Part shown: piece after piece, positions 5,177 to 58,318 of the stretch
Numbering within the stretch: the first letter of the stretch is position 1
Layout: every line of letters begins with the position of its first letter
From: Clavelina lepadiformis
Lineage: Eukaryota > Chordata > Ascidiacea > Aplousobranchia > Clavelinidae
Assembly: GCF_947623445.1 (NCBI RefSeq)
Contig: NC_135243.1
Span: 9,674,501 to 9,738,500, forward strand
Length of the DNA: 64,000 nucleotides
Direction: 5' to 3'
Made by a program: the position numbers and the translations under genes
Notes under the pieces: generated by a model
Seen by the model: the letters and a program-made list of their open reading frames with translations, nothing else
Told to the model about the DNA's origin: nothing
The model's database searches: none

Positions 5177-11812
<6,636 letters not shown>

Positions 11813-16069: not shown

Positions 16070-17138
16070 GTCTAGACGGAAGATTTGGAGAACTTGACTA
16101 ATAATATTAGTGAACCCCAATACAACACTACCAACTTTCCCAGTATAAATGCATAAACTGCAAGTTACTTCAAGCCTAACTAACCCACAGAAGTCCTATC
16201 ATGACAATGAAACCTGTTAAACCACAGCTTATGGCCTGCACAAGATAAATTCTATTCGGTACCCACTTATATTTCTATCCAACACCAACTGTAAAGTTTA
16301 TAAATTTTGCATTGGGATATCATAATTATAAGACGTCACTACATGCATCATAAGACAAGGCAAACTTGCAACATATTTCTGGCAATATTGGCTAAATTGT
16401 GCTACACAACATTGAAAAATTGCAAGCTAGATATAATCACTGGCAAGTCTTTCACTTACTACTGTATTGAAAATACCATTTGTATCAATGTTTTAGAACT
16501 GGGCCTTTTTCCCCCTCTTTAGTATGAAAAACAAAGTTAACTTTAGAAACAGTGACAATTACAACAGCATTAAGAGGTACTTAGAACTATTGCAAGGTTC
16601 AGATGTGTATAAAATACAGACAAGATGCAAGGTGCGTAGTCAAAAACCACAATGAAACAACTAGAACATTTCAAAGAAAAGAAACCAAAAATCAAAATAT
16701 CATCTACCTAAAATTCTAGATTAACAAATTACCATAAAAATGGCAAACTGCTAGAATTTAAATCTAATATATAGATACATATACCTGAAAATGAAGGAAC
16801 TCAAACTAATAAGTCAACAATAAACTTATCTACAAAGAAATATCTGTGTAACCGTGGCTTGATATCTAACATGTTATTGTGCATAAACCACCTGGGCACA
16901 AAAAATTAAGTGTAAAGAAGATTTGTGAAAAAATTCAACTAAACACAATGATCTAAACCTGCAAATATGCAAAAAATGAAGGTGATATTTAAAGTTACTC
17001 ACAGTCTGTAAGAAATTGAAAATTTTGGGAAAACTTCGCAAAAAACATCTTGAGAGTTTCAAAAAAAAGAGTTTAAGTAAAGTAAACAGTTATACAACTA
17101 AAGAAACTATGTCTCAATGTCTGGTTTCTGACATACAA
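16070..17138. other. Intergenic DNA downstream of chitobiase-like copy 2
   Basis: AT-rich, no coding sequence recognised. It should contain the 3'UTR of the gene at 17139. Confidence 0.4.
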
Positions 17139-19783: not shown

Positions 19784-20908
19784 CTACTTGTTACGCTTCA
19801 ACAAGTATGCGTATTCTGATAGTGTGTTCCACATCGCTGCAGTTTCACTTTTTATCTTAAGATCAGTCGATGAATAGTCCAGTGTTTCAGCACGCCACAT
19901 AGTAAAACCACCAAGGTTTAATTTAAGACCAAGTTCATATTTCATTTTCAAACTTTGAACATCATCAAACCAGTACTGGTGGTAAACTCCATTTTCTAAT
20001 GTAGTGAAGTAAGGAGAAGCGGATTTTTCATCCCATTTTAATCCACCTTGAACAGTGTCATTGTTGAGAACTTTCATTATGTCAGCAAAGTTTTTCTGAG
20101 ATTCTTGACTGTCAAGAATTACGCATAAATCATAGCCTGTTCTATTATAAAATTTACTGCATGTATAATCATACCCGTACCATGGAACAGCCATAACCAA
20201 GTGACTGGCAGGTATTGAAAGGTTAGTTATGTACAAATGGTAGGATAGGGTAATGAGGTTTAATGGACTGTTTGCATTAGCAACAAGAACATCAAGGGTG
20301 GCATCATAATCCATTACTATGAGATAATCAGTATAATTTGCCAGCGCAACAAAATCGTAACAAAATCCAGTCAAACATCCCACTATGTCTGGGGAGTAAG
20401 GAACATCGAAGGAAACTGTAAAAGCATGGTTAAGACTTTTTAATATCATGCGTGTTTCACGTGTAATAGCTGTTACACTATCAACTATTTCTTGATTAAA
20501 TGCATTCCCTTCAAGATCAAGATTTAAGCCATCAAGATGATATTGCTTCAACTGTGTCACCCAAGAATTTAAAACCTGCTTACGATATGCTGTTTGAGTA
20601 AGTTTTGAAACATCAGCACTAACCAAAGTAGTTGCACGAACGTTTCTAGAACGAGCATAACAGTATAATTCTTCAGACTGGTCTAGATTGCCGACAAGGA
20701 TAATAGTAGTGATTTCAGTCCAATTCCACTTCTTCCAGCTGTCATCAGTAACAGTAATAAATACTGCCAATTCTTTTGCAGATGTTTTTGGGATTGGTTC
20801 ACACAGTTTTTCAGAACTGCATGGACATTGTGCATTCGTATTGGTAAGGCAATTTAAGAAAACCATAGAGATAACAAATAGTCTAAGGCAATGGGCTTCC
20901 AGTCCCAT
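19784..20908 (-). CDS. Di-N-acetylchitobiase-like GH18 hydrolase, copy 3 (374 aa)
   Basis: Third intronless GH18 paralogue, head-to-tail with the other two. Signal peptide about residues 1-26 (ends NTNA), then QCPCSSEKLC. The active site DGLNLDLE is at 126-133, with Glu133 as proton donor. The VMDYDA, MAVPWYGYDY and VQGGLKWDEK blocks, HQYWFDD, and MWRAETLDY are conserved. It is shorter than the other two because about 13 residues are missing between CVILDSQES and ADIMKVL. AG directly abuts the ATG, again like a splice acceptor. Predicted secreted or lysosomal hydrolase of GlcNAc-beta-1,4-GlcNAc; substrate is inferred from the family. Confidence 0.92.
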   Translation of the reverse strand: MGLEAHCLRLFVISMVFLNCLTNTNAQCPCSSEKLCEPIPKTSAKELAVFITVTDDSWKKWNWTEITTIILVGNLDQSEELYCYARSRNVRATTLVSADVSKLTQTAYRKQVLNSWVTQLKQYHLDGLNLDLEGNAFNQEIVDSVTAITRETRMILKSLNHAFTVSFDVPYSPDIVGCLTGFCYDFVALANYTDYLIVMDYDATLDVLVANANSPLNLITLSYHLYITNLSIPASHLVMAVPWYGYDYTCSKFYNRTGYDLCVILDSQESQKNFADIMKVLNNDTVQGGLKWDEKSASPYFTTLENGVYHQYWFDDVQSLKMKYELGLKLNLGGFTMWRAETLDYSSTDLKIKSETAAMWNTLSEYAYLLKRNK

Positions 20909-22492
20909 CTTTATTGACGTTTACAATATTATAATTATTAATATATAATATATGAGCTTTCAATTCGAACCTAAACAAAAACCAATATACTCTAATATTA
21001 ACAACAACATTTTGATTTTGTGTAGGTTGCAGCAGAAACAATAAAACATAAGACAGAAAATTCAAAACTATAAATTATACAATACCTTGAGTTTCTTATA
21101 ATATTTGATAAAAAGATATTTTTTAGTAGGTAATGGATGTTAATTGCATGTTATAAATATCTTTTATACAATAACAAAGTGTCGTATCAATATAGCCTAT
21201 AAACAAGGATTAAAATTTTAGCTTATACATATTTTGGAATCTGCGTAATGTGACCATGATCATCGTGAAAGCAAACTAGTTTGGTCATAGTAATAATATA
21301 TACCCAAATGGTCAAATAATACCTGAAGTTGCTGTAACTATATTTCGATTAACATGATTAGCAACAAACGAAACAAATAAATATTTTGGTCTTTTGTAGC
21401 TCAGCACAGCCTCATGTTTTATCATGAACCATAACCATGAGTTGTGATGTATAAAGAAATGATGTTAACTGTCATATGGGACACGAGACACATATCCAAA
21501 AAACATGCATTCAGACAAGGTGAAGTACGAAATGAAGTTTAACATGTACATGAATGTATGAAAAATTATAGGCCTAGCAGAAAGTGTAAAAAGTGGTGTA
21601 ACATTCAATATTTGGTTATTAAAAATTAAGATTTTTTGTTCGGAAAAATTTTGGAACTTTCCATAATGATCATAAAAAGCATTTGATCAAAGTATCCGTA
21701 GCTATATTAAGTGGCTTCTAACCTTCTACTGTGTTTGCATGACCAAGTGTAGGCCAACTTCATAATAATTTTAAAGTTTGACTAAAATAAATTACAAACA
21801 ACAATATGATTTAAATATGCAAAATGTCTAATACAGACAGAAAATTTTATATACTGTATCTGATAAGACAACACCTAAAAGAATAAACTACATATATATA
21901 TTCAATAAACTACATAAAAATATTTTAATTTTTAATTACAAAAAATTTTGTCGAATGATATATAAATAACTAGCATTGTAAACAAAAATTATCAGTCAAA
22001 CACTTACTTTACATAGCAAAAAAGTAAGTGGGGTGCGCCCGCCAACGAGTGTTTCTGTTGCTTAATGAACAACTGTCATTAAAACCTTGACATGGATCTG
22101 TAGCGGCCTGGGTGGTATTTTTTAATACCTTTACATCATTTCTTGTAAAAGTGTTTTCTAATTATTGATTGAAGTTTATGAACTTGTTTTTTTGACAAAC
22201 ACTTTAACTGTCGTTTGATATTTGGAAACTTTCTCTGAATAACTTTTAGTACGTTTCCAGGTTGTTTTGCAGCATCAGTGCAGATAAGAAGCCTTTATTG
22301 GAAATGCCCGCTTCTTAACTTTAACAATTATTATTTTAATTTATTTATGTCTAAATGTGTCGGCTTTAGCTAAATATATCTCACATTGTTTTCCTCGCTG
22401 CACATGTTATGAAATGCTGCGTTTTTCTTGTCGAAAATTTTCAATCGGGAGTCATTCCATATATAATCAACCAGTCCCTTTACCCACCAGTC
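20909..22492. other. Intergenic DNA upstream of chitobiase-like copy 3
   Basis: AT-rich with no recognised gene. It should hold the promoter of the 19784-20908 gene at its left end. Confidence 0.4.
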
Positions 22493-28363: not shown

Positions 28364-28789
28364 ATGGAATTCAGCCAATCAAGTTCCAAGGGGGCTGGAA
28401 AAGCTACTCCACCCAGCAAAATCAAAGTAAAAAGTCAACTGAATGAAACTGATAGTGAGTACCAAAAGCGTCGAAACAGAAACAACATCGCAGTTAAAAA
28501 AAGCCGTTTTAAATCCAAAGTCAAAGGAAACAGTACTCTTGATACTATAAACCGACTAAAAGTTGAAAATGTTGAATTAGAAAGTAAGGTGGAAGGTCTT
28601 AGCCAAGAGCTATCAACTTTAAAGAAGGTATTTATGGAACATGCAAGAGGATTTGGTGGTGGTGATGCCCAGCTACCAGATTTACAACAATTGGAGCAAC
28701 AACTTGGATATAAACTTACTGAGAAATCTCCAGCTCAACGTGCAGTTCAGGCTTCTCTTAATACAGATCCAGATGACTCATCAACCTGA
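28364..28789 (+). CDS. CEBPG: C/EBP-gamma bZIP transcription factor (141 aa)
   Basis: Short bZIP nuclear protein without an activation domain; in vertebrates it heterodimerises with C/EBPs and ATF4 and modulates their activity. The basic region is residues 32-53 (EYQKRRNRNNIAVKKSRFKS); the AVKKSR core and the following KSK are typical of C/EBP-gamma, where other C/EBPs have AVRRSR. The leucine zipper runs about 60-90 with L/V/I at heptads (TLDTINRLKVENVELESKVE). It ends FMEHARGFGG, like the human LFLEHAHN block. Human CEBPG is 150 aa, so length agrees. Intronless CDS, as in vertebrates. The canonical C/EBP gene lies 5.4 kb downstream on the same strand. Confidence 0.95.
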   Translation: MEFSQSSSKGAGKATPPSKIKVKSQLNETDSEYQKRRNRNNIAVKKSRFKSKVKGNSTLDTINRLKVENVELESKVEGLSQELSTLKKVFMEHARGFGGGDAQLPDLQQLEQQLGYKLTEKSPAQRAVQASLNTDPDDSST

Positions 28790-30450
28790 ATTTTTATGTT
28801 GTTTTTGCCATTCTTCTTTTTCAGCACTGTGGTTTTTGTGCCCAATTGCTAACGATGCAATAATTATAATTGTTTCATAATAAGTTAGTTAAGTCAGATT
28901 GTTGGGATTGTAATATTACTAGCATAAGTTTTGTAAATGAAAACTATGTAGCACTTTTTGTGTCACTTTAGTTCCATGGAAAATCCTTTCATGTTTTCAA
29001 TTGTAAACATGGTAACATTAGTAACATTACACTATCTGTTTTGGCAGATTAAAATTTAGGTAAACAGAAAATCCTTTCTTAATAATTTTAAGTTGTATTA
29101 TACCATTAAAGTTTTAAAATTATCTTTTGTGTGGTCTAACCCTAATATCGTCATTTAATACTTGCATGTTGTCTATGTAAACAACTCACACATTCTCAAC
29201 AATTATATTGTTCTTTTTGCGTTTCCCTGTTCTCTGCGATAACATACCAGTATTGTGGTAATGATAATAGCTACTATCTATATTATATCAACTTTTATGT
29301 AACATGTTGAGTTAAGGATATGCGACCATGCTATTTCAGTTTTGACTCAAGTTTTATGGTATGCAACTTGTAGTATATTTTTGAACTCTTTTACCAACAT
29401 ACATATCTATCTATGAATGTTTGTTGAGTGACTGAGTGCATGAGATAGGCTTGATGTTAAGAGAAAATTTATGTTTTTGTTGCATATTATTATTGTCATT
29501 TTAAGTGTAGTAATGTAAATAAATCCTGATTAACCGAATTTTCATAATGTAGACTTTTTCAAAGTCATGATAGTAGGATACAAGATATTAGTTTTACTAA
29601 ATTTTACATCATTTATGTTCTTATCATGACTAAGTGTGCCATAAAATTTCTGCTTATTGATGAATTTTCTTACAATGTTGACTGTTGTTATAATTTAAGA
29701 AATCACAAGTTCCTTCTGCTTACATCACTGTAATGAAAGAGATCGTCATACTTAAATTTGTCATTTCAAACACTTTCACTCAAACAAAGCGTTAAGTGCC
29801 AGATGACTCCCAGTTAAGGGAGCATCAGATTGCAGAGGGGCACAATTCACAAACACAATTTTTGGGACATCAAAATTGTGCACCATAAATCATATTATTT
29901 TTCGTCAAAAGCGCGGCGGAGACGATAAATCCAGCCAGTTGCTACTGATCCAATACGGCGTAGAATACTAGAATACGGATATCTACACTGTATTTGATAT
30001 GTATACTATAATAATATGCTCCCATCGTCACAGATTCTTTCGGCACCGAGGACTTGGTAATCAATTGATTAATTATTATAACTTGTTCAAATTTTTAAAC
30101 ATATAAGTAAAAATTAACCGATTTATTTGTAATAGAATTGCTGTCAACTGAAATTATAATTATAATCGGTTTCCCACACATATGTTACGATTAACTTTTA
30201 ATCTAACTAGAATTGATTTACGGTTAACTATTTGGCAGTTTTTCAAGGCCATACAAATAAGCTTATTTATTTCAACATGGTGCACGCCTGTATGGTCATT
30301 CGATCAGTCAAGCTTGATTTGTTGTTGTAAACAATTAGGCTAAGTCTCGATTGACGCGTCATAAACACGTGGTCTAAATGTAAAACAACCGGAGCTTCAA
30401 TAATTGCATACCCATAAATTAAGATGGCAAAACTGTTAGAAGGGGTACAG
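28790..30450. other. C/EBP-gamma 3'UTR and intergenic DNA
   Basis: AATAAA at 29518-29523 may be the C/EBP-gamma poly(A) signal; an ATTAAA near 29104 is an alternative. No other gene recognised. Confidence 0.4.
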
Positions 30451-30924
30451 TAGTGGTTCCCAAAGTAGGCCTATGGGTCGCGAAGTTTCAAAAATGTTTC
30501 GCACACTCGCGCCGAGGCAATGCAAATCTGGGTATCGAAGGTCAGAAATAGGTCGTGTTGTGTATTTTCAAGATTCCTGTTTTCAAGTTCTTTGAATATC
30601 TCATCATAGAATGAAATGTTTGATGTAATAATAAACTGAATTATTCCATCATAGACATTTCATCCGAGAGTTCTAACACATGCGTGGTAAAGGATAACGT
30701 GGTTTGTAAGTCCACAAGTCAAGATTAGTTGATTACGGTACTATTTTGGAGTAAAGTTATTAAGCTTACTGTTTTTACTGTGTTTTGTTAAAGGGTTAAT
30801 TAGTTAAAAATTAAGATGTTAAAAGGTATGTAATTGTGCTGCAATACGCTGTTTGAGACTTGCGTTGCGAGGTATTCACCAAACTCAGATTTGGGTCGTG
30901 CTGAATAAAGTTTGGGAATCGCTG
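30451..30924. mobile_element. Non-autonomous hAT element with exact TSD
   Basis: 474-bp element with ends TAGTGGTTCCCAAA and, read inward from the right, CAGCGATTCCCAAA (11 of 14 match). The 8-bp duplication GGGTACAG is exact at 30443-30450 and 30925-30932. GGGTCGCG and GGGTCGTG follow the ends, a common hAT subterminal motif. No transposase reading frame seen. Confidence 0.85.
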
Positions 30925-31397
30925 GGGTACAGTGTATGGAGGTTGCAGTGGTCTGCTTCATAATATTTATAAAGTGCTACCCAGTGTTTCTTAAGTGAGG
31001 ATAGGGGATAATTTTAGCAGATAATTAGGGGATGCTGAAAATGGCGTTAAAAGCGATAACCGTAATGGGTAGGCTTACCATAATTTTGTGGCTTCAAAAC
31101 GGGACGCTTTTGACATATGACGTCATAATAACATTTTTATCGAATACAATGAAATAAATAACAAACAAGATCACGAATTCTTCTTCAAGAAGTACCGGTA
31201 CGCTACACAGCAAAAACAATAATAAGAACATGCTAATGTTCGTGTATGGCTTCTATGCGGTATGCCTATGCTGGCTGACTAAATGCCAAACCAGGACGTT
31301 TGGCCGACCGATCGGGACGCCGGGACAAGACGTTAAAAAGGGGGACTGTCCCGGCTAAAACGGAACGTATGGTAAGCCTAGTAATGGGGTTCTAGGT

Positions 31398-31557
31398 CGA
31401 TTCAACCCACGGACGATTCAACCCAGGACGATTCAACCTACGAACGATTCAACCCGCGGACGATTCAACCCGCGGACCTCTCAACCCCCGGACAATTCAA
31501 CCCACGGACGATTCAACTCAGGACGATTCAACCCCCGGACGATTCAACCCACGGACC
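31398..31557 (+). repeat. Tandem repeat array, left foldback arm (~10 units)
   Basis: About ten degenerate 15-16 bp units of consensus GGACGATTCAACCCAC. Variation is mostly in the last two or three bases (CG, CC, AC, AG). Confidence 0.9.
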
Positions 31558-32280
31558 TTTCACGTACTTATGGCTTAGTTATTACCAAGTTACTTTGTAG
31601 CCAATTGTAAGCTTAATATTGGACAGTCTAGACTCTAGAGTTAGGCCATCCTGAATAGGCCTGTAGGCTACGTCGTGGTTAACGGTTATGGTACCATTGC
31701 AATCGTACCGTATTTTGTTCAGGTACAAACTTCAAACTAATCACAACGAAATAAGCAAAATTATAGCACACAGAATCCCCCTCTCTGCTATAGGAAAGGT
31801 TATTCGTTTATTTTCAAATTATAATAAATTGACTGGAGACAATACTATTCTCAAAATGTTCCATCTCCCGATTCAAATTTTTTTGCGGGAAATCTTCATT
31901 CCCATCAACAAACAGTTGTTTCTAAGGTTTGACTTTTAATCGACGTGTAGGCTTTATTTATTTTTCGCTAAGCAGGCCTACTAGTTACAACACGGTATAT
32001 AAACTTGCTTTTATTTCAACACAAGATGTGTATTGGTATAGTAATAAAAGCGGCATCCATGCCTGATAACGAACTGCGTAGACGTTTTTGTAAATGGGTT
32101 AAATCGACCTAGAACCGAACAAAATACGGTACGATTGCAAAGGTACCATAACCGTTAACCACGACGTACAGGCCTATTCAGGAAGGCCTAACTCTAAAGT
32201 AGAGACTGTCCAATATTAAGCTTACAATTGGCTACATAGTAACTTGGTAATAACTAAGCCATAAGTACGTGAAAGGTCAG

Positions 32281-32453
32281 TGGGTTGAATCGTCCGCGTG
32301 TTGAATCGTCCGGGGGTTGAATCGTCCGTGGGTTGAATCGTCCATGGGTTGAATTGTCCGTGGGTTGAATCATCCTAGGTTGAATGGTCCTGGGTTGAAT
32401 CGTCCGCAGGTTGAATCGTCCGGGGTTGAATCGTCCGCGGGTTGAATCGTCCG
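32281..32453 (-). repeat. Tandem repeat array, right foldback arm (~11 units)
   Basis: Inverted counterpart of the left array, units GTGGGTTGAATCGTCC. The minus-strand open frame across it (32254-32526) is a by-product of a repeat unit without stops and is not a gene. Confidence 0.9.
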
Positions 32454-33198
32454 ACCACCCCGTAATGGACGTACTGCGGTCACTATAGGGAATATAGGCG
32501 ATTTCTCCTGCATACTGCACCTCCAAATTTATGTTAACTCAGCTGTAGCTCATTAGAATTAAAACATTTGATTATAAAACAATGATCGACATCAAGACTT
32601 TCGTCGGAATTTTAGTGTCACAACGACGAAATGCGATCTAGTGCTGACTACTGATTAGTTATATCTTTCATTTTGGTGTTTTCCTTACTTCCATTTAACT
32701 AGCCTACAGCGTGTCCATTTTCTTTTTAGTGCATTATATTTTAGTTTAAGACAGGCTATCAAATAGGCTACCCCTTTTGTGTAGTAGGCTAACTCTCAGC
32801 TTTAAGTAATTTAATTTTGATTATTACCGATTTAATAAATTCTATTTTGTTATTTTCCGGTTGAAAAATTCTCATATGGGTTATTTCATTTTTATCAATT
32901 CCAGTTGGTTGTTTTTGTTCGAATTTCGTAGATAAGTTTTGAGAAAAAGGCTCTCAAACTTTGGAGGGGCTGACAACATTCAAACATTATAACAAACTCC
33001 TAAATGAATAACGTTTTTAAACTTTTATAAATTGCGTATACGTGTGGAATTTCCTTGCACTCCTGCTCGTGGGAGTAGAAATTCGAACTACGGTATATAA
33101 CAATTTAGACCGATCATTTCGCACGGAAGTGAAAAAAGAGTTCTTGCTGAATCCTGTTATTTTCGGACTTGACCAGTCCCTCGGTTTTTGTACTAGAT

Positions 33199-33209
33199 GG
33201 GAAAGTCCC
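33199..33209. promoter_or_regulatory. NF-kB-like half-palindrome GGGAAAGTCCC
   Basis: An 11-bp GGGA...TCCC motif 11 bp upstream of the palindromic C/EBP site. It differs at one position from the 10-bp kB consensus, so this is suggestive only. Confidence 0.35.
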
Positions 33210-33220
33210 GTTTTCCAGTA

Positions 33221-33230
33221 ATTGCGCAAT
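33221..33230. promoter_or_regulatory. Perfect palindromic C/EBP binding site
   Basis: ATTGCGCAAT is the optimal C/EBP dimer half-site pair with no mismatch. It lies about 960 bp upstream of the C/EBP ATG and 195 bp upstream of the CRE/TATA pair. Confidence 0.6.
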
Positions 33231-33424
33231 GCTTTCGACACAAAAAGTGTTTAAGGCCGTAAACGAATCAAGAAATTTTCTAATGTAAGAGTAAGGAAAG
33301 ATTTTTAAATAAAATTTATTTACAAAAAAGATGTTTTGACAGTAATATTACATCACTGCAAGAATTTTACGTATTATACTGGTTTAATTACGACAACAAC
33401 AAGATGCGGATGAATACAAAGCGA

Positions 33425-33439
33425 TGACGTCATATAAAA
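33425..33439 (+). promoter_or_regulatory. CRE abutting a TATA box
   Basis: TGACGTCA (33425-33432) is immediately followed by TATAAAA (33433-33439). On the plus strand this would place a start site near 33465 and give C/EBP a ~720-base leader, or a shorter one if spliced. Confidence 0.5.
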
Positions 33440-34187
33440 TGGTTTAAGATCTTGTGATGACCTCTTAGCGTCGCAATTGTTAACAAAGAACGTTCTGGTT
33501 TAGTTAGGCTAGAGAAAGATTTGGCAGGCTACTAGGATTTCTACTGGTGTCCACTAAGTCATATGCTCAGGACTGAACTATCCACTGATTCATCACGAGT
33601 TGGTGTAGACAGACAAATAAATAAAGCCTGACTCTCATACCGCGTTTTCAATGGTACCGGTACCTCCCTACAGTATAGCCTAAGATGGTGATTAGGTGAG
33701 CTATTGCCAGATTGTGCGGTGCGGTACAGTAGTAGTTTTGTGGTTTGAAACTTTGTATGGTCCTGAAATGCTTAACGTTTAAAAATCCCAAACATAATTA
33801 TAACTTGACGCTAATAATACCCGAAATTTCCCAGCTTGGCAAAGCACTTTAATAAACTCTTGCGAGTAGCTTAGTATGTTATTCTTGACAGACTACCTGC
33901 GCATCAGAAGTCTGAAAGTGCAATATCATTACCTGCTGAGATATAAAGTCGACAGAAGTGTCTAACTTAGCAGTTAGTGTGGCAGAATTTGATGTATTTT
34001 GTAAACATTTTCATACCAGTGAAGGATCTGACTAAATCAATGGTTTTTGTATTGTTTGGTACTGGTATATAGGCTAGTGATACTGGTAGCTTAGTCAATT
34101 TAAAATTTTCAAGATGATTAAATAATCTACTTAAAATTATTCTCTAGATTCACAATTCGATAGGCCTTACGATTATGAGGCCAAGCA

Positions 34188-35132
34188 ATGGCTTTTGATC
34201 CCAATTTGAATCGTGGAGGAGCTTGCAAAATTCCTATGTCTAATACAAGTTGCACTGAACTATCTGATTTGTGTCAGAACGACGAATCATTGGACTTTTC
34301 CCAATATATAAGCAACAGCGGAAACTTAGAACTCTGCAGTGACGAGCTCTTTCAGAATATATTTTCACCAGAATCGCCTTCAACAAAAGTTGTAAAAGGG
34401 GAAGAGCTTGATCAATTTGACTCGGAAGTTGAAAGTTGGTATTGTGCAAGTGAACCAACTTCTGCCTGTGCATCAGCTTGTTCATCGGCTGCCCCTTCTC
34501 CCGTGCCATTTAATTATTACAACACTCCACCTGTGACTCCACAGTCTGATCGTTACCGATCAATTTCTCCCAGTACTTTGCAATTTGATGGACTGAACAA
34601 TACAATGGCTGGAAGATTTGCTCCAATTCGGGAAGAAGATCCAAGCAACAATTATGTTCCCGTACGGCAATTACCTGCAGAAGCAGCCCAACTCCAAGAG
34701 CCAGTTGTGATAAAACAGGAACCCGGTATTCAGCAACCTATGCAACCACCACCTTACAGTTTGCATGTGAAAAAGGAACAAAATGCCACTCTTACAAGTC
34801 AACAAGTCGTCAACATCGGCAGTAATGAACATTCCTCCAATTCTCTAAAGCAAGCAGCAAAGAGATCTGCCACTACTCATTACAAAGGCCCAAACAAGAA
34901 AAGTAAATCCATTGTAAAAGGTACTGAAGAATATATGTTAAAGCGTGAAAGGAACAATGTAGCTGTTCGTCGCAGTCGCGACAAGGCAAAAATGAAGGCG
35001 ATTGAAACCCAAAAGAAGGTTGAAGAGCTTTCAACGGAAAATGAGCAGTTACATAAAAGAGTGGCTGAGCTTTCGCATGAACTTAATACCCTTAAAAATC
35101 TTTTGAAATCACTGCCCCATGTTAGTGCCTAA
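34188..35132 (+). CDS. Canonical C/EBP bZIP activator (alpha/beta/delta type, 314 aa)
   Basis: Intronless C/EBP transcription factor, pro-orthologue of vertebrate CEBPA/B/D/E. The N-terminal activation boxes are recognisable: NDESLDFSQYI (31-41) and SDELFQNIFS (51-60) correspond to the C/EBP-alpha ETSIDISAYI and DEFLADLF blocks. TPPVTPQS (113-120) aligns with the TPPPTP GSK3/proline-directed kinase site. VVIKQEPG (173-180) matches the vertebrate sumoylation motif at Lys176; VKKE (194-197) is a second candidate. A basic Lys/Arg patch (about 221-246) leads into the basic region EYMLKRERNNVAVRRSRDKA (248-267), then a leucine zipper to about 307. Nuclear, binds ATTGCGCAAT. A perfect site of that kind lies upstream. 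Confidence 0.95.
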   Translation: MAFDPNLNRGGACKIPMSNTSCTELSDLCQNDESLDFSQYISNSGNLELCSDELFQNIFSPESPSTKVVKGEELDQFDSEVESWYCASEPTSACASACSSAAPSPVPFNYYNTPPVTPQSDRYRSISPSTLQFDGLNNTMAGRFAPIREEDPSNNYVPVRQLPAEAAQLQEPVVIKQEPGIQQPMQPPPYSLHVKKEQNATLTSQQVVNIGSNEHSSNSLKQAAKRSATTHYKGPNKKSKSIVKGTEEYMLKRERNNVAVRRSRDKAKMKAIETQKKVEELSTENEQLHKRVAELSHELNTLKNLLKSLPHVSA

Positions 35133-36310
35133 AAGTTTGTTTGTTAAAGAGACTTATATAATATATATTTAATAGAATATGTTTTAGTCACTAAGTTCCA
35201 TTCTGTTCCACATTTTAACTGCTACTTAACTTGAAATTTTCACTTTATTTTTTGCGTGGTTGACATTATAACATTGCATTTTAACACAATCAAGTTTTTA
35301 ATGCATTGCTTACATGAATTTTATTATTACGTATTCATTGAGTTAGTAGCATTTAATGCATTGGTTTGTAAAATAGAATGAAAACCCAACTGTTAATATT
35401 ATTTATACAGTAACAATTCCATGTATCAATATTGTGTACAAAATATATAAATATGGTCAAAACTTAAATTGGTATGAGGCATGTTTTATGCAAAGTCGGT
35501 GCCTATTTTTCCTTCGGTAAAACTGCTGACTGATAGATTTGTTATTGTTGATGTGAGGAGGCTTGGAAAACAAGACCCGACCATGTTGGTGTTACTTTCT
35601 AGTATTGCATGTGCGCATGGTTTGGGTTACTGCATATGAGTCATAATTAACAAAATTAATCAGCTGTATAAACCGTTCATTCGTAAAGCATTTCATGCTA
35701 ATTACTTCATTTTTATTGCTCTGTTCCTTTACAATCTTTGAATATAAAAATGAAAGAAAACTCCAAGGGCTGCTGTGTTATACACGATTTACTGAAAAGC
35801 CGGTTGAGTAATACTAGCTGTAGGCATAAATTATAGTCTATAATGTTAAATTGATATGTAAGTGTGACTGTGTGTAAAGCAGTGTTTATGTGGAAGAAAC
35901 TGCATTTTGTGTTAGTCCAGTGGGCAACAAACAAGTGCAGTGTACTTAATTAATTATTAACCAAAGGAGGAACTATATGAAGCCTCCCAAACAACAGGGT
36001 CAAAGTCCGCATGAATTGTTGATGCTTTAAATACTTTGACAAGCCAAATTATGACCTCAATGCAGCTTTCTGATAATTATTTTGATGCAGCAGAAATCCC
36101 CTAACATAATTTCCCTTATCTTTTGTATTTTTTATGGAGGCCTTTTCCAAAACAACTTTTAATCAAAAAGACATAAAAACAATAGAAATACACAGTGAAC
36201 AATGGAAAATGCAATTGAACAGAATGTGAAACATGGTAAGCATACATGCTGATACTAAACAGTAAAAACGCTTTAAAACAGGCCTCCATGGGCAATGTCA
36301 ACCACAAATT
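35133..36310. other. C/EBP and SPIDR convergent 3' region
   Basis: 1.2 kb between two tail-to-tail genes, so it must hold both 3'UTRs. A minus-strand AATAAA (TTTATT at 35712-35717) is a candidate SPIDR signal. No extra gene recognised. Confidence 0.45.
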
Positions 36311-39300
36311 TCAAACATGAGCAACCTCCTCAGCGACAAAACTTCTTTGTACTGATATGCTGAACCTTCCGTACACAAAGCACACTACTGGGCCGATGGT
36401 TTTACCAATTAATGATGTTGAATTTATATCCTGTAAAACAGATTCCCATACATTGGGTTCTGAATGCCTTCTTCCCATACTGAAATAGCTTACTTAAAAT
36501 GGACTTTGAATTAATATTTAGCTATACTACTAAACACCGATAGCTAAACAAACTTTATATTTTTGTTACAAGTTGGTCTCTGGGAATAGTGCACTGTGAC
36601 CAACCACAGTGCTAAGTAATACATTTGGTAGGCTAATGTTTCTATAGAACTTACTTGAACAGATTGAAAATTTAGCATTTCCACCACCGTGCTGTAGAGA
36701 ACCTAGACATGAAAATGTGTATATGAAATATAGAATAATATAAATGTAATAAAGCCAAGAAAGTTTTTGATGATCAAGATTAGAAGAGTGTTGCAAGTAA
36801 GGAATAACTTTATCACAACAAAAACATCCTCAATATGTCACCTTAAGCTTTACTCTGTACTGCATTTGTACAATTACAAGAATGTTCAAGAATTCACCTT
36901 GAATAGTACCGTTTTGTCCCACACAATCATGGAGCCTGTAATACAGAAATATTTTACGAAAGTAAAAATAATTAATGTTTTAACCAAGCATTTAAAAAAT
37001 AAGCCGGCTTATATTAGCCAAATAAACAGGAAATAGTTGTGCTAAATAAAAGGGTTGATCGTGACAAATCAGCGTTAATTCATCTCCTTATAAGAGCAAA
37101 AAAAGCTGTAAGAGCGCATGACAAATGTAAAAAAGTGATGACAATTTTGCACGTGCAAAATAGTTCACACCAGGAAGTAGGTAGAGACGGCAGCCATGCT
37201 ATCATATTCCAAATAGCAAGCGTGATGCCTTAAAACAATGAATGCACTCACATGATCGCTTGTATGTTTCTGGTTGAGCGTGACTGTACGTCATCTGTAC
37301 TTTGTGGCAAAATGCTACATATGACACCTGCAAAAATGCCTATCTAATTTATTCTGCATGGTGCAATGATCTCAATTGACTCTGGCACAATTTGCAAGAC
37401 AACAATTTACTTTGAAGACAATTACTATTTAACATCTCAACAAAACAGGATATAGCAATCAATGCTAGGTACAATTTCAAGAATGGTTTGATTTACTTAT
37501 ATTTAGTGTATCAAAGTTCGTATACCAATGTAAAATGACACATTAACATTTAATGAAAATATATGCAAATTGTATAGTATAATTCCATATATAATAAACG
37601 CTATTGGGTTGTAAGCATACCTTCCAGTTTCACAAAGGAACCTGGCTCTGATTTTTCATTAATAAATGGGACAAAAGGAAACTTCATATCCCTTAATGCT
37701 TCCACTGACTCGGCGTTTATTCTGGGCAAACGACCGCTCCAAGAAAATCTTGTTGATTTGCCAATATTAACCACATGACTGTATGCATCCAGAAGGAGAC
37801 AGCCATCTGAAAAACAAGATGACATGTTGTCGCACAATGTTATAAGGGTATTTTTGTAAACAAACGTTAGCTTCCAACAAACAAGATGTACAGTGTGTGA
37901 CTGTGATGTCATCGTCAAAGGTAGCATGCCTATACTGCATTAAGTAATCTTTAACAAAATTGTTGTATTGAAAATGTTTTTCACAAACCTGACGAAAACT
38001 GTAAGTCCCTTATTACAATTACGTCACCATGATCGACGTGCAAGGTAAAAATATTGCAGATTTCAATCCCAAAAATTTTGTCAGATGTTTCATCAGCAAC
38101 ATAAAACATTGGCATGTTTAAACGTACTGCATCACTCTCTGACTGCTCAGGGCAAGGGTAGTGCTTGTGAAGTATTTTACACACTATGTTCCATCTATCA
38201 ATATAATTTAATTTCACTGTGTAAAAAAGCTGGAAACAAAGTTATTCGAAGATTACTAGTACACTAATCTAAGCACAAGAAAGCCATAAATTAAATGAAA
38301 ATTTAATGAGTATAACAGTTTATACTGTATAAAATTAATCCAAAGAAAATAATAGTAAATATTGTGTAAAATAGAAAGCGGATTGTTTAACTATATTGAA
38401 ACATTTTGTGTTAAAGAATGGGAAGCACACATAACAGCAATAGCAATGTAAGAGGGTAATGCCGGGTGTAACAAAACTACCTTTCACAAACAATTTCACC
38501 AAAATATGGTAAGGTTGGTAAGTATAGTTTTCAAGTGTGAGGAACTGAACAGTTCCTGAAACCCTCGTCTTTTTTGCAGACATACAAACAACTACCTATG
38601 TCAGTTACCTTGTTGAAGGAAGTGAAAGTTCACCCAGCTGTTCAAAGTTAGACAACTTGCACCACTTTGTGGCTTGATAAAGAACATCATTCAATATTGA
38701 GCCATCGATGTCAGGCCTATTTAGTTCGCTGCATTTGGGAAACTTGCGGATGTTTTTTTGCGCCAAATCATGTGATGTTTCAGTTGGAATCATACATGTA
38801 GTCACTTCCCTCCTTGCTAATAGTTTATAGCAAAAACTCGGTGGTTGCAATCGTGAACCTTGTGAGCTTCCTGAACCCTGTACTCAACAAAGACAAACAT
38901 CAATTGAATCTATACTGCACAGGCTTTTACAGCACAAAACATAAGGCACTCAGTTAAATTATTGTCAATATTCAAACGCTAAGAGAAAACTGTAATACAA
39001 ACAATTAAACTTGCTCAATACTTGATAACAAAATACCAAGTTTTTCTGAAACTTTGAATAAGAAAACAATGCAACATTAATGCACATTCAAAGCAATTTC
39101 TGCTAAATTTCATTTCCCATATTAATGTTATGTTCTGATAATAACTGAAATAAGCAGATAGTATGTGATATTTTCATCTGCATTTGTCTCTAACTAGGGA
39201 AATTTTTACATGTAACATGGCACACTAAGGCCAACTTTGTGTCTTAGTATCAGTTATAACAGTCAAGGTTACCAGAATACTCACGGCTGCTTCTTGGCTC

Positions 39301-42300
39301 TGACTTTGGCTGTTTTGAACCTGAAGCAAGCCAAATCCTGATGGATTCCAGATGTAATCAATCAAGTTGAACAGCGCAGGTAATCTATTACAATTCTTTA
39401 TTCATAGAAACCTTATTATTTGCACTACCAACAGCAACAAATTTACAATATGCATTTTATGATGAAAAAATTAAAAAACCGTCATGTTTTAGTCAATATT
39501 TGCATGTTTCATAAGAGAAACTGCTTTTAAACTGGACTTTGTACTGGGATTGCTTAAAAATATTTGGTACTACTGAACAACTTATTTAAAAACGTGCAAG
39601 CACTTACTGAACTCTATTCATTCTTCCCTTAAGATAAAGCTTGCTAAAATAGACACGCTGCCCCTCACCATATTTGATTAAGTGTACCCAGGAATCACTG
39701 GAACACAGAGCTGCATCCAGCACAATTTCAAAAAATATTCCAAAAGCATCTTCGCATAAAAAAGTTTTCCTAAAAATAAAGCATGGAAAGTTGATGGAAA
39801 ATTTGTTTAAACAGGTAGTGGTATAATTTGTCAGAAATAACAATCCTTATAGTCTGCAGAGTTGGTCGCTTAAATGAGTATTATGGTTAATCAATACAAC
39901 GTTTTATAAACTAAAGTTATGCAAGTTGTACAAGCAGTTTGATGATGTATGATATGTTTCAACAACAAGTATACTTCACAGCATCGCCATGCCATAAGGT
40001 GCGGTAAATTCTTTGAATCGTCGCCGCTAAGCATACTCCTTCTGCACATTGTTGACTCTCTAGTGCCTCCAAGAGGCTTTCACAAGGATGAAAAGGAGCC
40101 TCTTTGAGTTGAGCTGTTGAGTTATGCTGTTCCACATATACCTAGCAAGTAAAAAAATAATTTTTCCACCAATTGTCAATGGTTGAGTAACTTGTATTTA
40201 CATAAAACAAAGAAATAAATTATATCAAAACAACAACTAGATGCCACCAACAAAATATATACATAGTATATAAACATAAAAACAAAATCGGTTCATTAAT
40301 TACAACTCATTGATTAATCATTGAAATGTCATACAACCTTTGCTTCTAAAATATTTATTAAATTTAAAGTAGCTGTACAAAGATTAACCTCTGAATCGTT
40401 TCTTCTAGTAAAGGATGTAGTTAGATCTGAGGTTTCAACTTCTAAGTGGTAAATGCACATAAGAACTGGGAAATCATGTTGTTCAACTTTCATTTCCTTC
40501 CTTGTGTACGCAGTACAATAATTAATACAGTATAACCCCGGTAAGCTGGCCATCCACAGGGCGGTTGGGACCAGTGTCAAATGGTTGTGTTAGTGAAACA
40601 GAATACTATACATTGCAATAGAATAAAAAGCTATTCCGGACCGCAAGTAAGTGGTCGTGATACTGAGGTGATCGTTAACTGGGGTTCTACTAGATTATCT
40701 TTGTAAAATGTGTAAAACAGTAAGTTAAATGATAGTTTGTACTTTAATGCTAAAGGTGTGTAATGTCTCATGAAAAGGTTTTTTAAAATTTTCTAAATCC
40801 TTTTTTTACTGTGGTGCATAACAACTAAGATGACAAAACGGAAATGGTGTAGCAAAAATAACATATGATAGTAGTTCTCTGTAAACATCATCAATATCAG
40901 TACATTGAAGATTTATATTAATCTGTTGGCCACCGGTATTTTATTTCACCAACATGTTTTACTATTCTTAAATCCTGAAAACATAGAAACATACCAAGGT
41001 GGGTAAATGGTAAACACTGATGTAAGATTTAGATTATTTGCAATCACATCATCATGACGAAAAAGTAGAGTATAGAAGCTGTTTGCAGTATTTCCTTTCT
41101 TAAACGCTGGTAACACCTGCAAACAATATTACAAGTTTAGTTTTAACAATTAAATCATTTTTATATCAGGAGAAAAATCTTAGGTTTGATCAATTGTTTT
41201 AAAGCTTTTACTAAAAACATTAAAAATAATAATTAGACAGCAATGCCACAAACATTACTTTATCTGCCATTGAAGATGAATTTCATGAAAACCTGAACTT
41301 TTACAATACCATTATATTCCATGAAAAGGGTTATAAAATCATAAAACTAATTACGTAGGTAGGAATTGCGGCCCCATAAGCACCAAACCACTCACTTTAC
41401 ATTCCATTATATGAAGTATCCCTTCTTTATGATGAGAGACTATCTTCAAAGTTAAACCACTTTGTGGACCTTTGATGGAATAGAAAACTTAAAAAATGAA
41501 CGGGAAGTAAAAGAAAGTTTATATCGTTATAACACCTTGGTTGTCAGTTTGATTTGTCTCCTTCAACTGGTGTTGAAACAAAACTTTTCTTGTTTGTTCC
41601 TGTTTTAAAACTCTTTGTAGCTGTTCTGCAAGCCCATCTCTGATAACATTAAAAACTGCATCAAATTTGTCCAGTAAAATTTAATTATCTAGCAACTAGT
41701 TAAGAGTATTTAAAGTGCTTGTCCATAAACATAACATGTCCATATGTCGATACAAAAAGTTAATTTAATTAATTGCAACTTAATTAAAACTGTTTACAAT
41801 TGTACCATTGATTAGAAACATTACTTTATAAACTTTTTCTTTTTTGCGGAGTCATAGGGTTGTGTGTGGTCCATGCTTGATTTCACACTACTTCTATCAG
41901 TCTTTTTCTCATCTAGTCTTCCAACTAGAGATTCAATCCAGCTCGAACCTTTATTGTTTGATGACGATGTTTCTTTAGTATCCTTGGGAGACAATTCTTG
42001 GACAGATGTGTTGCTTTCATTTTCCAACGCAGAAATGTTACAGCTTTCCTCACCATCAAGTTCAATTTCCTGACAATAAACAACAAGTTGATAAAAACTA
42101 TATAACTGATATCTACACAATGATACAGAATAAAAGCGATTAAACAACATGTGGCGTAAAAGTCTATCAAATTGTTAATATAAAAACAACAAAGAGTCAA
42201 TCCAAATACAAATTTACCACAACCTTTTCAAACTCACAATTAACTAACTGTTTTAATACTTGCTTTTTCTGAAGCTTGAGTGGTGGAATCTTCAATAGTG

Positions 42301-45300
42301 TTGCCGGTTAAAGTGCAATTTTCCGATACATCAAGCTGGCTCTCTATCAAGTCTTCCAGGTTTTCATCTGCGTCACTATCTGGCTATAAACAAACAAAAT
42401 AGTTATGTAACTATAGCTAATAGTAGAGGGATTGCTGGAGTGAAACTAAACATAAGAAAACACCAAAACTATATAATTTCTAAATATTAGTAAATCTACT
42501 ACATCCTTTGCTCGCTACTTCTCAATTGCAATAAGCTGTACCAGTGGCACAGCTAATGGAGTGTGATCATAACCCGAATTCTCTACATTGCTATTTTCAT
42601 TGGCATGTAGGGATAAGTAACTTGCACCGGCAAACGAATCAAGTGGGATACCTTGTGATATACACAAAAATATTTTTTATCATACATACGGCTGTAACAA
42701 AGCCTTATTTAAACTTTTAATAATAATGTTAAATTACACTTGCAGTATAAAAAACCAGCAGATGCACAAAATGAAAATATTAGTCACCAGGTGTTATTGG
42801 ACTGATCGGCAATAACGATGGTTTTCTGGATCTTTTCTGCACTGTTGAAAAGCGTCTTTGAGAAAGTATTGGACTACCTGCAACAATTGTGGTCCCAGTC
42901 TCAATATAAACAAGTGCTAATACTGCAATAAAACTACTACTTTCAATTGATTTGCGGATTTGGTTAGACATATATTGCAAATTGTTTGCATTAACCTACT
43001 GTCGTAAATGCTGCCAAGTATCAAGGTGGTAACGGATTATTTAATTAGAAACAAACTTTTCATAATTGTTGGTGAAGTAACCTTCAACCACTTTGCCTTT
43101 ACCTTCCCACATTACTTTACGATACTTACAATTACTTTACTATCTATTCAATTTCACGCTCTGATAACCAATTCATCATCATTAAACTGAATGATTCAAT
43201 TAATTTTTACGGCAAACAACTGCAAAAACTTAAAACATTGCTTTAATTTCAAATTTCTGTTTCCTCTTCTACTAACCTCTCATGCAAGGAATTTACCTGA
43301 GGGTGTGCTTTTAACAATACTACCAGATGAGTCGATAGATTTTCTTCTGGATCCATTTAACACAGGACTAGCTATTACGCCTGAAACATAGCATATAAAT
43401 ATATAATATTTGATATATTAATATTTTAAAAACAGTATATGTATGTTGGTATCATATTGAAGAAAGTCTTTGCACGACCTAAACTGATTTTTCATCGCGT
43501 AAGCTTTGGTTACCAAGTTTGTCTTTTGTGCAAGTTCTAATGGATATATAAACCTTTTTGTATATTTTTGGATTTTGATTTTATTGCCTAAATTTGGAAC
43601 TGTTTGCCAGGACCACTGAACAGAAGCAAACATTGTTCATACCTTGCCTAAGAACGATATTACGATAGTTCCACCAGGTATCGTACATTGTACACTTATC
43701 GCTTGATTGCAAGCTCAGCGCTCTAACCACTCAGCTACCACTTTGTTGCTTGGCTTAATTTTTAAATAAATGTGTCAGGTTGTTACAAACTATTACATCT
43801 ATTTATTTTGTGAAACTCACCGAAAGATTCAAACTCAGGGAGACCTTCGTGATCCAACCGATAAAGAGCTTCATCGTCACTTGAACTCCACTGAATACTT
43901 CCGTCTTGAGAAAAGGGTGCTACAGCTTGAAAAAAAATTGCTGTAAGCATTTGTGAGAGCTCGAACATATGACATTCTTATCAAAGAATGGAAAGAATTA
44001 AATAAATCTTGAAAAATGCTTTATTGATATACTATAGATAAGTGCAAAATCTACATCCAAGGTAAACAGGCAGTAAAGTTGTTGTATTAAATAAAAACAT
44101 TTCACAAATTATAAATCGTAAGACAAACATTCTACTTTTTACATCAACTAATATCAAATACTTAAACAAATCGCAAGTTTTTAAGAAAAGCAACCAAATA
44201 ATTGCAGTGTGATTTGCACATATGACATACTTGTACAGACATTTAGCATGCATTAAAATAAAAATGTTGCTTTTGTTGTTGTTTTCTGATTTAATAAGCA
44301 TCGTTTTTGCAGTTTGACCACCTAGCATAATGGGGTATAATAATTTTACAAGAAAATTTGAAACTTAACATTGCTTTTTAATAGACTTCTCTTGCAACAA
44401 TAAATAATCTTGTGTTTTTTTGGGGCGAAATGTAAAGGTTTGGGTCATTGGTGGCAGCTTGGTAAAGTATCCAGGAGTGCCAAATGACCAAACCAAACAC
44501 AAAGTATAACGTGTTCAGACGGATATATTTGTAATAAAGGTTTAGCTGTTAGTTAGTCTTAAAATTACGTCCAACTCACATAAAAAAGTCATAAACATAT
44601 GAGTATTGAACATTCTTTTGATTTGATATATATGAAAAGTATCAAGGCTTTTTTTAAAGAAATCTTAAAAGATTTGGGAGTATTCATTAAGTCATACTCT
44701 TTTTGCATAGAAAATTGGCAGAAAGGTATTTATTCAACAACAAATACTAGCAAACCAAAGCAATTATGAATTAACACATATAGTAGAATCAAATTAACAT
44801 GACCACGGATAATATGACCACTGGCTTTAAATGACCATTTTGGGATGGTACATTTTGCCATACAAAATTCTCTGTTTACTATGACCAGTCTTCAAATAGC
44901 CTACTATGACCACTTTTTCATTTTTTTTAGATTTTTTTGTGTCATTTGTGCCTTGTGTATTTTCAGTTTACCTACTGACACTCACTTTAATGTTACTGCT
45001 TACCATTAATAAAATAAATGATGAATTCAATATTTTTTTGTCATTTTGCACCTAACTGTTATTGATCCTGGTGTGGTTAAAAAGTATTGAAGCAGTTTCG
45101 GTTATGGTGACTATTTCAAAATTATGACTTTTTCTTGGTTGCTTATAAAAAAAAGAAACATTTTTTGGCTTTTCTTTTCTTTTAAGGATCGGAGGTTCTT
45201 CTTCTGTGCAAGCAAGAAAGGTGTCAAATGAAATGAAATAAAATGTCAAAGGCATCACTTTCCTTACTGAAGAACAGGACTGTGGTCTTAGCCTACTGGT

Positions 45301-47003
45301 GTGCTATTTGGACAAAACAACTCCGTTGTGCACCTGCCGTATTCTGCAGTCTGGCCGAAGGCCACATTGACTGTGTTGGGGGTCCTGCCTGTTGCACCTG
45401 CATGCAACAGTATACATGATACATATTGGTTAAAAAATGTACAACATATGGACTGTTTGTTTATAAAAGACAGCATATTGGTATGTTGTAGGCATACATA
45501 CTTGTGTGACCTAATCTAGCTTCGAAATAAAGAACCGGAAAAGCATCCACCAGGTGCAGACCATGGCCAAGGAAGCAGAATATTCAGTATGTGACATTTG
45601 TTATAATGCAGCATTTTATTAACACATTTTGTTAATGCATTGCACAACTTATTGTCATACAAATGCTTTTTTGTGGTATATGCTTAATCCAATAAGAAAA
45701 TCTAATGAGACTAAAGTTTCGAATTCAAGTCAACTCATAGATTTTTTCCAAACATACCCTTAACAATATGCTGCTTGATGTAATACAGAAATATATGATT
45801 ACTTCTACACAATGCGCTTTAACAATTACTTAGAGTGACTTATATTCAAGGGCGACGACATTATTGTTTGTTTCTTATTTTTTTGCATATATGAGCTATC
45901 AATAAATGTATCTTATAATTGTGGCAATGCAGTATGTTAGGCTAATACTTGTTTGCTGCATTAAGTTTAATGAATAATGCTGATGTATGTTGTAATTTTT
46001 ACTTATTACTACCAGAGTCTACATAAAGCCACATAAACAGGTAAAGCGTTTAATATTTTCCCATGATTAAAAAGGTTGTAATTATCGCTGCCAATCAAAC
46101 TTGCCTGAGTATTTGCATAATGGACAACAAACGTCCAACAAAATGTTTGCTTTTTCACCCATTTGGTTGTATGTGTGCGTTTTTCTTATTTTCTCCCACA
46201 AAGTATGGTAAATAAACATTGCTTGGGGGTGACCGATGTACAGCGGCTCCAATTGTATTATTAACCCCAAAATTTAAGCAGTTTTTCGTTGTATCGTTGC
46301 AAAATTATTTTTCAAAATGTGACCACAGCCAGATGGCAGGTCAAAAGACAAAATTCCTGTCAGCGTCTTCAATATAATGCATAGGGCAGCTCTGAATTCT
46401 ATTTCAATAATCTTGAGGTTACGCAGTCTGCAAGTAGTGAAAACTACAGCAAGGGGCAAGTTCACTGATCAGCGCTGTGTATTTGACGTCCAACTGCGTA
46501 TTAATCGAGTTAAAAGACAGCAAGAATCAATTTGAACACCTGGCCCAAAATTAAACTCCAAAGCGAGAACTATAACAATTAGGCCATTGCATCAGTTGAT
46601 AAATATTAGACTAGCATTACTAACAGAAAGGCAAAGAAATGTAAATAAAAACTTTACTTCCTTGGAAGAAATAGCAACAAAAGTTTATACATATCAGTAC
46701 TACAGTCTATACTCTATACAGTTTAGTATATAAATACTTATATATATAAGTACATATATTACATATATATATATATACCAAAAGGAAACACAACCAATCT
46801 GTGAAGCAATTAACATAAAATAATCAGTATTTAAGAATATATGTATTACACAACACACAATAGATCATACCAAGTGTTAAAAATTTATCTTTGGTGGCAG
46901 ATTTTTTTGTTTTTTTCCTCGGTGGTGTGTTTGATGTTTTAATCAGGTCAGAAAAGTTTTCACAACATTTCTCCCAGTCTTTATTTGGAAAACGTTTTCT
47001 CAT
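36311..47003 (-). CDS. SPIDR: SPIDR, scaffold protein involved in DNA repair, ~20 exons
   Basis: Homologous-recombination scaffold that in vertebrates links RAD51, BLM and FIGNL1. Exon model: 47003-46871, 43925-43821, 43380-43297, 42877-42788, 42651-42542, 42383-42249, 42069-41825, 41639-41536, 41487-41396, 41116-40995, 40500-40338, 40141-39975, 39769-39608, 39384-39285, 38877-38609, 38563-38481, 38216-37989, 37806-37621, 36702-36655, 36492-36311. Every phase fits; total 935 codons versus about 915 in human. Recognition rests on QWSSSDDEALYRLD, DGLAEQLQRVL, SGLTLKIVSHHKEGILHI, FTIYPPWKEMK, a long C-terminal OB-fold-like region, PPSFCYKLLA, and the end SLIGKTIGPVVCF. The N-terminal third is acidic and Ser-rich. 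The first exon and the last two junctions are least certain. Intron 1 is 2.9 kb, the others short. Confidence 0.9.
40528..40692. mobile_element. pogo/Tigger-like MITE in a SPIDR intron
   Basis: Ends CAGTATAACCCC and, from the right, TAGTAGAACCCC; TA precedes the left end. It sits 28 bp from the acceptor of the SPIDR exon ending at 40500, so it lies in the polypyrimidine/branch-point zone without entering the exon. Confidence 0.65.
46734..46779. repeat. AT dinucleotide microsatellite
   Basis: Interrupted (TA)n runs in SPIDR intron 1. Confidence 0.7.
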
Positions 47004-58000: not shown

Positions 58001-58318
58001 AGTGTTGAAAGAATTAATTCTATTATGTCACAAACAGTACACAAATCCAATTGAAACGCGTCAGTGGAATTACAAGTTATCCTCCAGGCATTAACACTTT
58101 AGTAGAAGCATAGGAATGCGAGTTAGGAAGGACTGTTAATATTGTTTATTTGTTTCACTGTAATTTGGATCAACAGCAAGAGTAAGAGCCGACTTATGTC
58201 AAATAAATTGATGTCCATTTAAGAAAACTATGAGTGAATGTGTTTCAATAAATGTGCAAGTGTTTTTGTTATTACAGCAGTGTTAAAATAAGTATATTAT
58301 TATAGCAACCTGAGCAAG

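What the first reader, a model, noticed from the sequence alone, without database searches (positions are those of the whole stretch)
28364..47003. C/EBP-gamma, C/EBP and SPIDR linked in one locus
Seen: C/EBP-gamma (+), a single canonical C/EBP (+) and SPIDR (-) are adjacent, with C/EBP and SPIDR tail to tail 1.2 kb apart. From memory, human CEBPA and CEBPG are neighbours on 19q13 and CEBPD lies convergently beside SPIDR on 8q11. The window therefore looks like the pre-duplication arrangement from which both vertebrate loci descend, with SPIDR kept beside CEBPD and CEBPG beside CEBPA. Orientation of C/EBP and SPIDR agrees with human; CEBPG orientation does not.
Basis: partly seen in the sequence, partly recalled or inferred. 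Interest (0 to 1): 0.78.

Follow-up and report, generated by a model that had tools for sequence, protein, structure and literature searches.

The report
Ancient C/EBP–SPIDR gene neighbourhood in tunicate
In a sea squirt, three genes that human chromosomes keep as two separate neighbour pairs sit side by side, which fits one ancestral neighbourhood that was copied and thinned out in vertebrates, although outgroup genomes are still needed to prove it.

Summary
The window is on chromosome 4 of an assembly whose sizes fit Clavelina lepadiformis. C/EBPγ (28364-28789, +), one canonical single-exon C/EBP (34188-35132, +) and SPIDR (about 47003-36311, -) are consecutive. C/EBP and SPIDR are tail to tail, 1178 bp apart. 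SPIDR was the doubtful call: a spliced alignment scores 260 (six shuffles 127-143, 11 other stretches 91-143) and hand-joined exons match Pfam DUF4503 above its cut-off. Among 8 of 14 genome-wide bZIP_2 matches read, only these two are C/EBP-type; all 11 SPIDR matches are this gene. Human KIAA0146/SPIDR and CEBPD lie 1.0 kb apart (PMC4741589).

The ancestral-locus reading is likely but not proven. C/EBPγ groups with human CEBPG (98/99). The canonical C/EBP is unplaced among CEBPA/B/D/E, as a pre-duplication gene should be, but the domain is short (human rows mostly recalled). A wider chromosome-scale block is not supported: 2 of 7 scored human neighbours, PRKDC and PEPD, lie on this chromosome, no clear excess over chance. 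No outgroup animal genome could be searched. It is a new example of a known kind: conserved microsynteny around a duplicated transcription factor.

The parts
28364..28789 (+). C/EBP-gamma: single-exon coding region, 141 aa, bZIP near the N terminus, no long activation domain
34188..35132 (+). canonical C/EBP: single-exon coding region, bZIP at the C terminus
35133..36310 (.). 1178-bp spacer between the convergent C/EBP and SPIDR stop codons
36311..47003 (-). SPIDR gene span, candidate ATG at 47003 to stop at 36311; exon ends in the N-terminal half are uncertain
41531..41641 (-). SPIDR exon, motif GLAEQLQ (recalled human GLAERLN)
39297..39771 (-). SPIDR exons at the start of the DUF4503 match (ALFNLIDYIW and neighbouring exon)
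38635..38868 (-). SPIDR exon, PPSFCYKLLA stretch
36314..36436 (-). last SPIDR exon, followed by the stop at 36311-36313

Best explanation
The window holds a retained ancestral C/EBP neighbourhood: C/EBPγ, C/EBP and SPIDR, of which C/EBP and SPIDR are convergent. The common ancestor of tunicates and vertebrates had this order. The two vertebrate genome duplications copied it. One descendant kept C/EBP with C/EBPγ (CEBPA-CEBPG) and another kept C/EBP with SPIDR (CEBPD-SPIDR); the CEBPB and CEBPE copies lost both companions. C/EBPγ and C/EBP probably began as an old tandem pair. Shown here: gene identities, order, orientation, and no second copy found in this genome. Inferred: the ancestral state and the loss pattern. 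Gene roles (C/EBP as activator, γ as a partner lacking an activation domain, SPIDR as a DNA-repair scaffold) are recalled from the families and were not tested.
For: Identities. Two C/EBP-type genes among the 8 of 14 bZIP_2 matches that were read; one SPIDR. Convergent spacing is 1178 bp here and 1.0 kb between KIAA0146 and CEBPD in human (PMC4741589 table, passages seen). C/EBPγ pairs with recalled CEBPG at 98/99. PMC4736632 (passages seen) puts the CEBP/CEBPg split on the bilaterian stem, with a duplication perhaps before cnidarians, so the pair of genes predates vertebrates. By my own arithmetic, two named genes being neighbours by chance among an assumed 15,000 genes is about 1 in 7,500, and both pairings together far less.
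Against: No outgroup gene order was available. Only one tunicate was examined. Other close neighbours (MYO5, NSUN2, GH18 genes, LHFPL) are not known from any vertebrate CEBP locus, as far as I recall. The chromosome-scale test gave 2 of 7 scored markers on C4 (expected 0.84; P of 2 or more about 0.20, my arithmetic).
Confidence: 0.8

Rival explanations
1. Coincidence: SPIDR, or C/EBP, moved next to the other independently in the tunicate lineage and in the vertebrate CEBPD lineage.
For: Tunicate genomes are much rearranged (recalled), 5 of 7 scored human neighbours are on other chromosomes, and gene pairs noticed after the fact carry a search penalty.
Against: Same partner, same convergent orientation (human strands recalled) and similar 1.0-1.2 kb spacing, plus a second pairing (C/EBPγ) in the same place. 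The chance figure stays small even if about 20 neighbour pairs could have been noticed (my arithmetic).
Confidence: 0.1
2. The gene called C/EBPγ is a tunicate-specific tandem copy of C/EBP, so its adjacency says nothing about CEBPA-CEBPG.
For: Tandem, same strand, 5.4 kb apart; short bZIP alignment with a long branch (1.4).
Against: It pairs with recalled human CEBPG at 98/99; it is closer to recalled CEBPG (39/74 identical) than to the window C/EBP (30/69); it has no long activation domain.
Confidence: 0.05
3. The linkage is far older than chordates (bilaterian or earlier), so it is not special to the chordate pre-duplication state.
For: CEBP and CEBPg split on the bilaterian stem or earlier (PMC4736632, passages), which would make the C/EBP-C/EBPγ pair an old tandem duplicate.
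Against: Not testable here; nothing speaks against it. It is compatible with the best explanation and would only push the date back.
Confidence: 0.45

Closest known systems
Human 8q11.21: KIAA0146/SPIDR, CEBPD, PRKDC, MCM4, UBE2V2 (PMC4741589, passages)
   Same: A canonical C/EBP directly beside SPIDR with about 1 kb between them; convergent orientation (human strands recalled). PRKDC is on the same chromosome here.
   Different: No C/EBPγ beside human CEBPD (recalled). Here PRKDC lies 5.8 Mb from the window genes and MCM4 is on C3.
Human 19q13: CEBPA-CEBPG-PEPD (recalled)
   Same: A canonical C/EBP beside C/EBPγ. PEPD is on the same chromosome here, 1.7 Mb away.
   Different: Orientation: tandem here, pointing apart in human (recalled). 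No SPIDR at the human locus (recalled).
Conserved metazoan microsynteny / genomic regulatory blocks (recalled; search listing only)
   Same: A developmental regulator kept beside an unrelated gene over long times.
   Different: No conserved non-coding element or co-regulation was tested here.

Membership tests
C/EBP family (canonical) | C-terminal basic leucine zipper closest to C/EBPs | tested here: met
   bZIP_2 56.4 bits at residues 247-298 of the 315-residue query; best PDB matches C/EBP beta then alpha, ATF2 next at E 1.9e-4; grouped with C/EBPs at 99/100
C/EBP family (canonical) | Binds CCAAT-type sites as a dimer | not testable with these tools
   no assay
C/EBPγ subfamily | Short protein, bZIP without long N-terminal activation domain, C/EBPγ-type basic region and zipper end | tested here: met
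   141 aa with bZIP at 30-82; with recalled human CEBPG 98/99 in the tree; CEBPG sequence and its diagnostic residues recalled, not from a database
SPIDR (DUF4502-DUF4503) | Pfam DUF4503 over its cut-off | tested here: met
   37.3 bits, cut-off 27, on exons joined by hand with a recalled human guide; no match in unspliced frames
SPIDR (DUF4502-DUF4503) | Pfam DUF4502 over its cut-off | tested here: inconclusive
   17.9 bits, cut-off 27; matches profile positions 267-373 of 376, before DUF4503; the N-terminal exons were not included
Pre-duplication C/EBP locus | Single C/EBP, single C/EBPγ, single SPIDR, linked | tested here: met
   6 weak bZIP_2 matches were not read
Pre-duplication C/EBP locus | C/EBP falls outside each vertebrate paralogue clade | tested here: inconclusive
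   unresolved among CEBPA/B/D/E in a 78-column tree
Pre-duplication C/EBP locus | Same linkage in outgroups (amphioxus, ambulacrarians) and other tunicates | not testable with these tools
   I found no tool here that holds animal genomes other than the window's own
Pre-duplication C/EBP locus | Other genes of the vertebrate CEBP neighbourhoods on the same chromosome beyond chance | tested here: not met
   2 of 7 scored markers on C4, expected 0.84; UBE2V not recognised, CSE1L and SLC7A did not complete

The most novel reading that the evidence does not exclude
The convergent C/EBP-SPIDR pair has stayed together for over 500 million years because SPIDR carries regulatory DNA of C/EBP (a genomic regulatory block) or because the two share a transcription-end region, so that the vertebrate CEBPD-SPIDR pair is the direct, functionally constrained remnant of the proto-C/EBP locus.
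Probability: 0.25. Interest if true: 0.6.

Novelty: new member of a known kind. Interest (0 to 1): 0.42.

Why it matters
It gives a concrete, cheaply testable model for how the C/EBP loci of vertebrates arose: one neighbourhood copied, with companions lost differently from each copy. It also marks SPIDR and CEBPG as single-copy tags of two of the four copies. If the C/EBP-SPIDR pair proves conserved across animals, it is a candidate for regulatory linkage at CEBPD, a gene of inflammation and cancer. As a gene-order finding in a single species it is modest.

Tried and rejected
Direct Pfam scan of the three minus-strand frames and the six-frame genome search with DUF4503 found no SPIDR. I rejected absence as the reading because SPIDR is split into many short exons; the spliced alignment and the Pfam match of the joined exons support it. 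A tblastn of recalled human SPIDR was weak exon by exon: best 27.3 bits (E 0.11), best of each of 20 shuffles 22.3-25.0 bits.

A PDB search with the joined SPIDR gave nothing useful: one match, E 0.93.

PRKDC, MCM4 and UBE2V came from the published 8q11 set; six more were noted before their results were seen, of which five were answered. UBE2V was not recognised and CSE1L and SLC7A did not complete, so these three were dropped before the count. MCM4 was told from other MCMs by a recalled motif, PEPD from its relative XPNPEP3 by reading it against recalled human PEPD. A mitochondrial COX1 search, meant to check the tunicate genetic code, found none; the organism rests on assembly sizes instead.

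Papers: nothing on C/EBP-SPIDR linkage outside vertebrates was seen in the search listings (titles, counts and starts of abstracts only, capped lists); two searches returned none. Irimia and colleagues' microsynteny paper (recalled) is not held, so earlier notice of this pair is not excluded.

Full report
Where the window lies. The window is C4:9674501-9738500 of a 209.06-Mb assembly in 95 contigs. Contig lengths seen (C1 28,783,666; C2 26,529,800; C4 25,070,715; C5 24,617,235; C9 15,725,681) fit the chromosome table of the Clavelina lepadiformis assembly: 28.79, 26.54, 25.74, 25.07, 24.62..., 15.73 Mb (PMC10884593, passages). The tool names no organism, so this is an inference from sizes. The C1 and C2 lengths are about 0.01 Mb below the printed ones, and the printed assembly has 102 scaffolds and 210.1 Mb.

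The three genes. The open frame 28364-28789 (+) is a 141-aa bZIP protein with its bZIP at residues 30-82. The frame 34188-35132 (+) is a canonical C/EBP with its bZIP at the C-terminal end. Its closest solved structures are C/EBP beta (E 6e-21) and alpha (6e-16), with ATF2 next at 1.9e-4. The γ-type protein also matches C/EBP beta best (E 4.5e-12); no C/EBPγ chain appears in that list of 20.

SPIDR. This was the least certain call, because no Pfam family matched the raw frames. The score was 260; six shuffled queries gave 127.0 to 142.75. The same query on 12 stretch/strand pairs of the window gave 260 at the SPIDR place and 90.9 to 142.7 at the other 11. Exons are collinear from the N to the C terminus, and the last one ends in a stop at 36311-36313. 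Exon translations joined by hand (537 aa, not every junction at a checked splice site) match Pfam DUF4503 at 37.3 bits (cut-off 27) and DUF4502 at 17.9 bits (below its cut-off of 27), in SPIDR order. That these two families are SPIDR's is recalled. The exons were chosen with the recalled guide, so the Pfam score is not wholly independent; the frames themselves are the window's. N-terminal exons (about 42-47 kb) are poorly fixed. Searched over the genome, the joined protein finds only this gene: 11 of 11 matches at C4:9710814-9716141.

Copy number. The bZIP_2 family search gave 14 matches genome-wide (27 candidates scored). Eight were fetched and read. The two window genes are C/EBP-type. The C5 match reads as NFIL3-like and the C1 match as PAR-like; in the tree both fall in the PAR/NFIL3 group (99/100), the C1 one beside recalled HLF (89/100), while the C5 one is not resolved inside the group. 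The four others read (37.3 bits or less) lack the C/EBP basic region; one looks ATF4-like (by eye). The six unread matches score 30.2 bits or less and could in principle hide a diverged C/EBP.

Orthology. In a 12-row, 78-column tree the γ protein joins recalled human CEBPG at 98/99, and the canonical protein sits unresolved with CEBPA, B, D, E, fly slbo and the γ pair. Identity of the canonical protein is highest to CEBPB (44/74), then CEBPD (36/67), CEBPA (41/77) and CEBPE (40/77); by alignment score the order is CEBPB, CEBPA, CEBPE, CEBPD. The data do not put it inside one paralogue, but cannot exclude it.

Comparison with human. PMC4741589 (passages) lists KIAA0146 at 48,336,094-48,811,028 and CEBPD at 48,812,028-48,813,279, with PRKDC, MCM4 and UBE2V2 in the same amplicon. 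That KIAA0146 is SPIDR, the human strands, the order beyond CEBPD and the CEBPA-CEBPG-PEPD neighbourhood are recalled. The gap is 1.0 kb in human and 1178 bp here. C/EBPγ lies 5.4 kb upstream of C/EBP here. No further gene was seen between them: three ATG-started frames of 50 aa or more have no Pfam match, and one fold-back repeat element lies there.

Wider neighbourhood. The window also holds the end of a MYO5 gene (DIL domain, 36-419; myosin-head-like frames in the left flank read by eye), NSUN2 (5180-6195, minus strand, PUA_NSUN2 over its cut-off in one of two exons), three GH18 genes (12721-20920, minus strand) and an LHFPL gene (58292-58777). None is a neighbour of a human CEBP gene as far as I recall. 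Five recalled neighbour probes (UBE2V2, SNAI2, KCTD15, an SLC7A, PTPN1) had no match better than E 0.18 in the window plus 30 kb on each side; a sixth, LHFPL-like, found the known LHFPL gene at only E 0.026, so sensitivity is limited. Chromosome-wide, PRKDC (C4:15.48 Mb; a weaker match also on small contig C48) and PEPD (C4:8.01 Mb) are on the same chromosome. MCM4 (C3), ARFGEF (C3, two places), PDCD5 (C8), GPI (C8) and Staufen (C7, one match at 32.3 bits) are not. UBE2V could not be recognised among 42 matches, of which 30 were fetched and read; CSE1L and SLC7A did not complete. C4 is 12% of the genome, so 2 of 7 is no clear excess. The two on C4 are the genes directly next to human CEBPD and CEBPG (recalled), but that is hindsight.

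Judgement. C/EBPγ-C/EBP-SPIDR in this tunicate most likely keeps the order of the last common ancestor of tunicates and vertebrates. The vertebrate pairs CEBPA-CEBPG and CEBPD-SPIDR are then two partial copies. CEBP and CEBPg are held to have diverged on the bilaterian stem, with the duplication perhaps before the split from cnidarians (PMC4736632, passages), so the C/EBP-C/EBPγ pair may be an old tandem duplicate. Whether SPIDR stays by chance or because of shared regulation is open. The missing evidence is outgroup gene order, which I could not get with these tools.

Noticed in passing
window 31386-32461: Fold-back repeat element in the C/EBPγ-C/EBP spacer: two 16-bp repeat arrays in opposite orientation plus further complementary arms (145 nt at 94%, 52 nt at 98%), probably a non-autonomous DNA transposon; one more exact unit at 53044.
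   Followed up: partly
window 34174-34236: A 7-codon out-of-frame upstream ATG (34174) overlaps the C/EBP main ATG (34188), with a second in-frame ATG at 34236 and an acceptor-like TTCTCTAG ending at 34148; vertebrate CEBPA/B also use upstream frames to set isoforms (recalled). May be chance.
   Followed up: no
window 12721-20920: Cluster of three single-exon GH18 genes on the minus strand, chitobiase-like by eye.
   Followed up: partly
window 1-7215 and left flank L073-L075: MYO5 gene running in from the left flank (+) and NSUN2 (-) beside it.
   Followed up: partly
G000:C48:5343-5690 (L062): Small contig with a 3533-aa open frame matching DNAPKcs_CC3, besides the PRKDC exons on C4; perhaps a contaminant or associated organism.
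   Followed up: no
L077, about window coordinates 79300-82500 (beyond the window's end): Pieces of a reverse-transcriptase-bearing retroelement in the right flank, by eye.
   Followed up: no
L076, about window coordinates 69804-71341 (beyond the window's end): Right-flank frames with a QDLSMK motif that may belong to a transcription cofactor; not identified.
   Followed up: no
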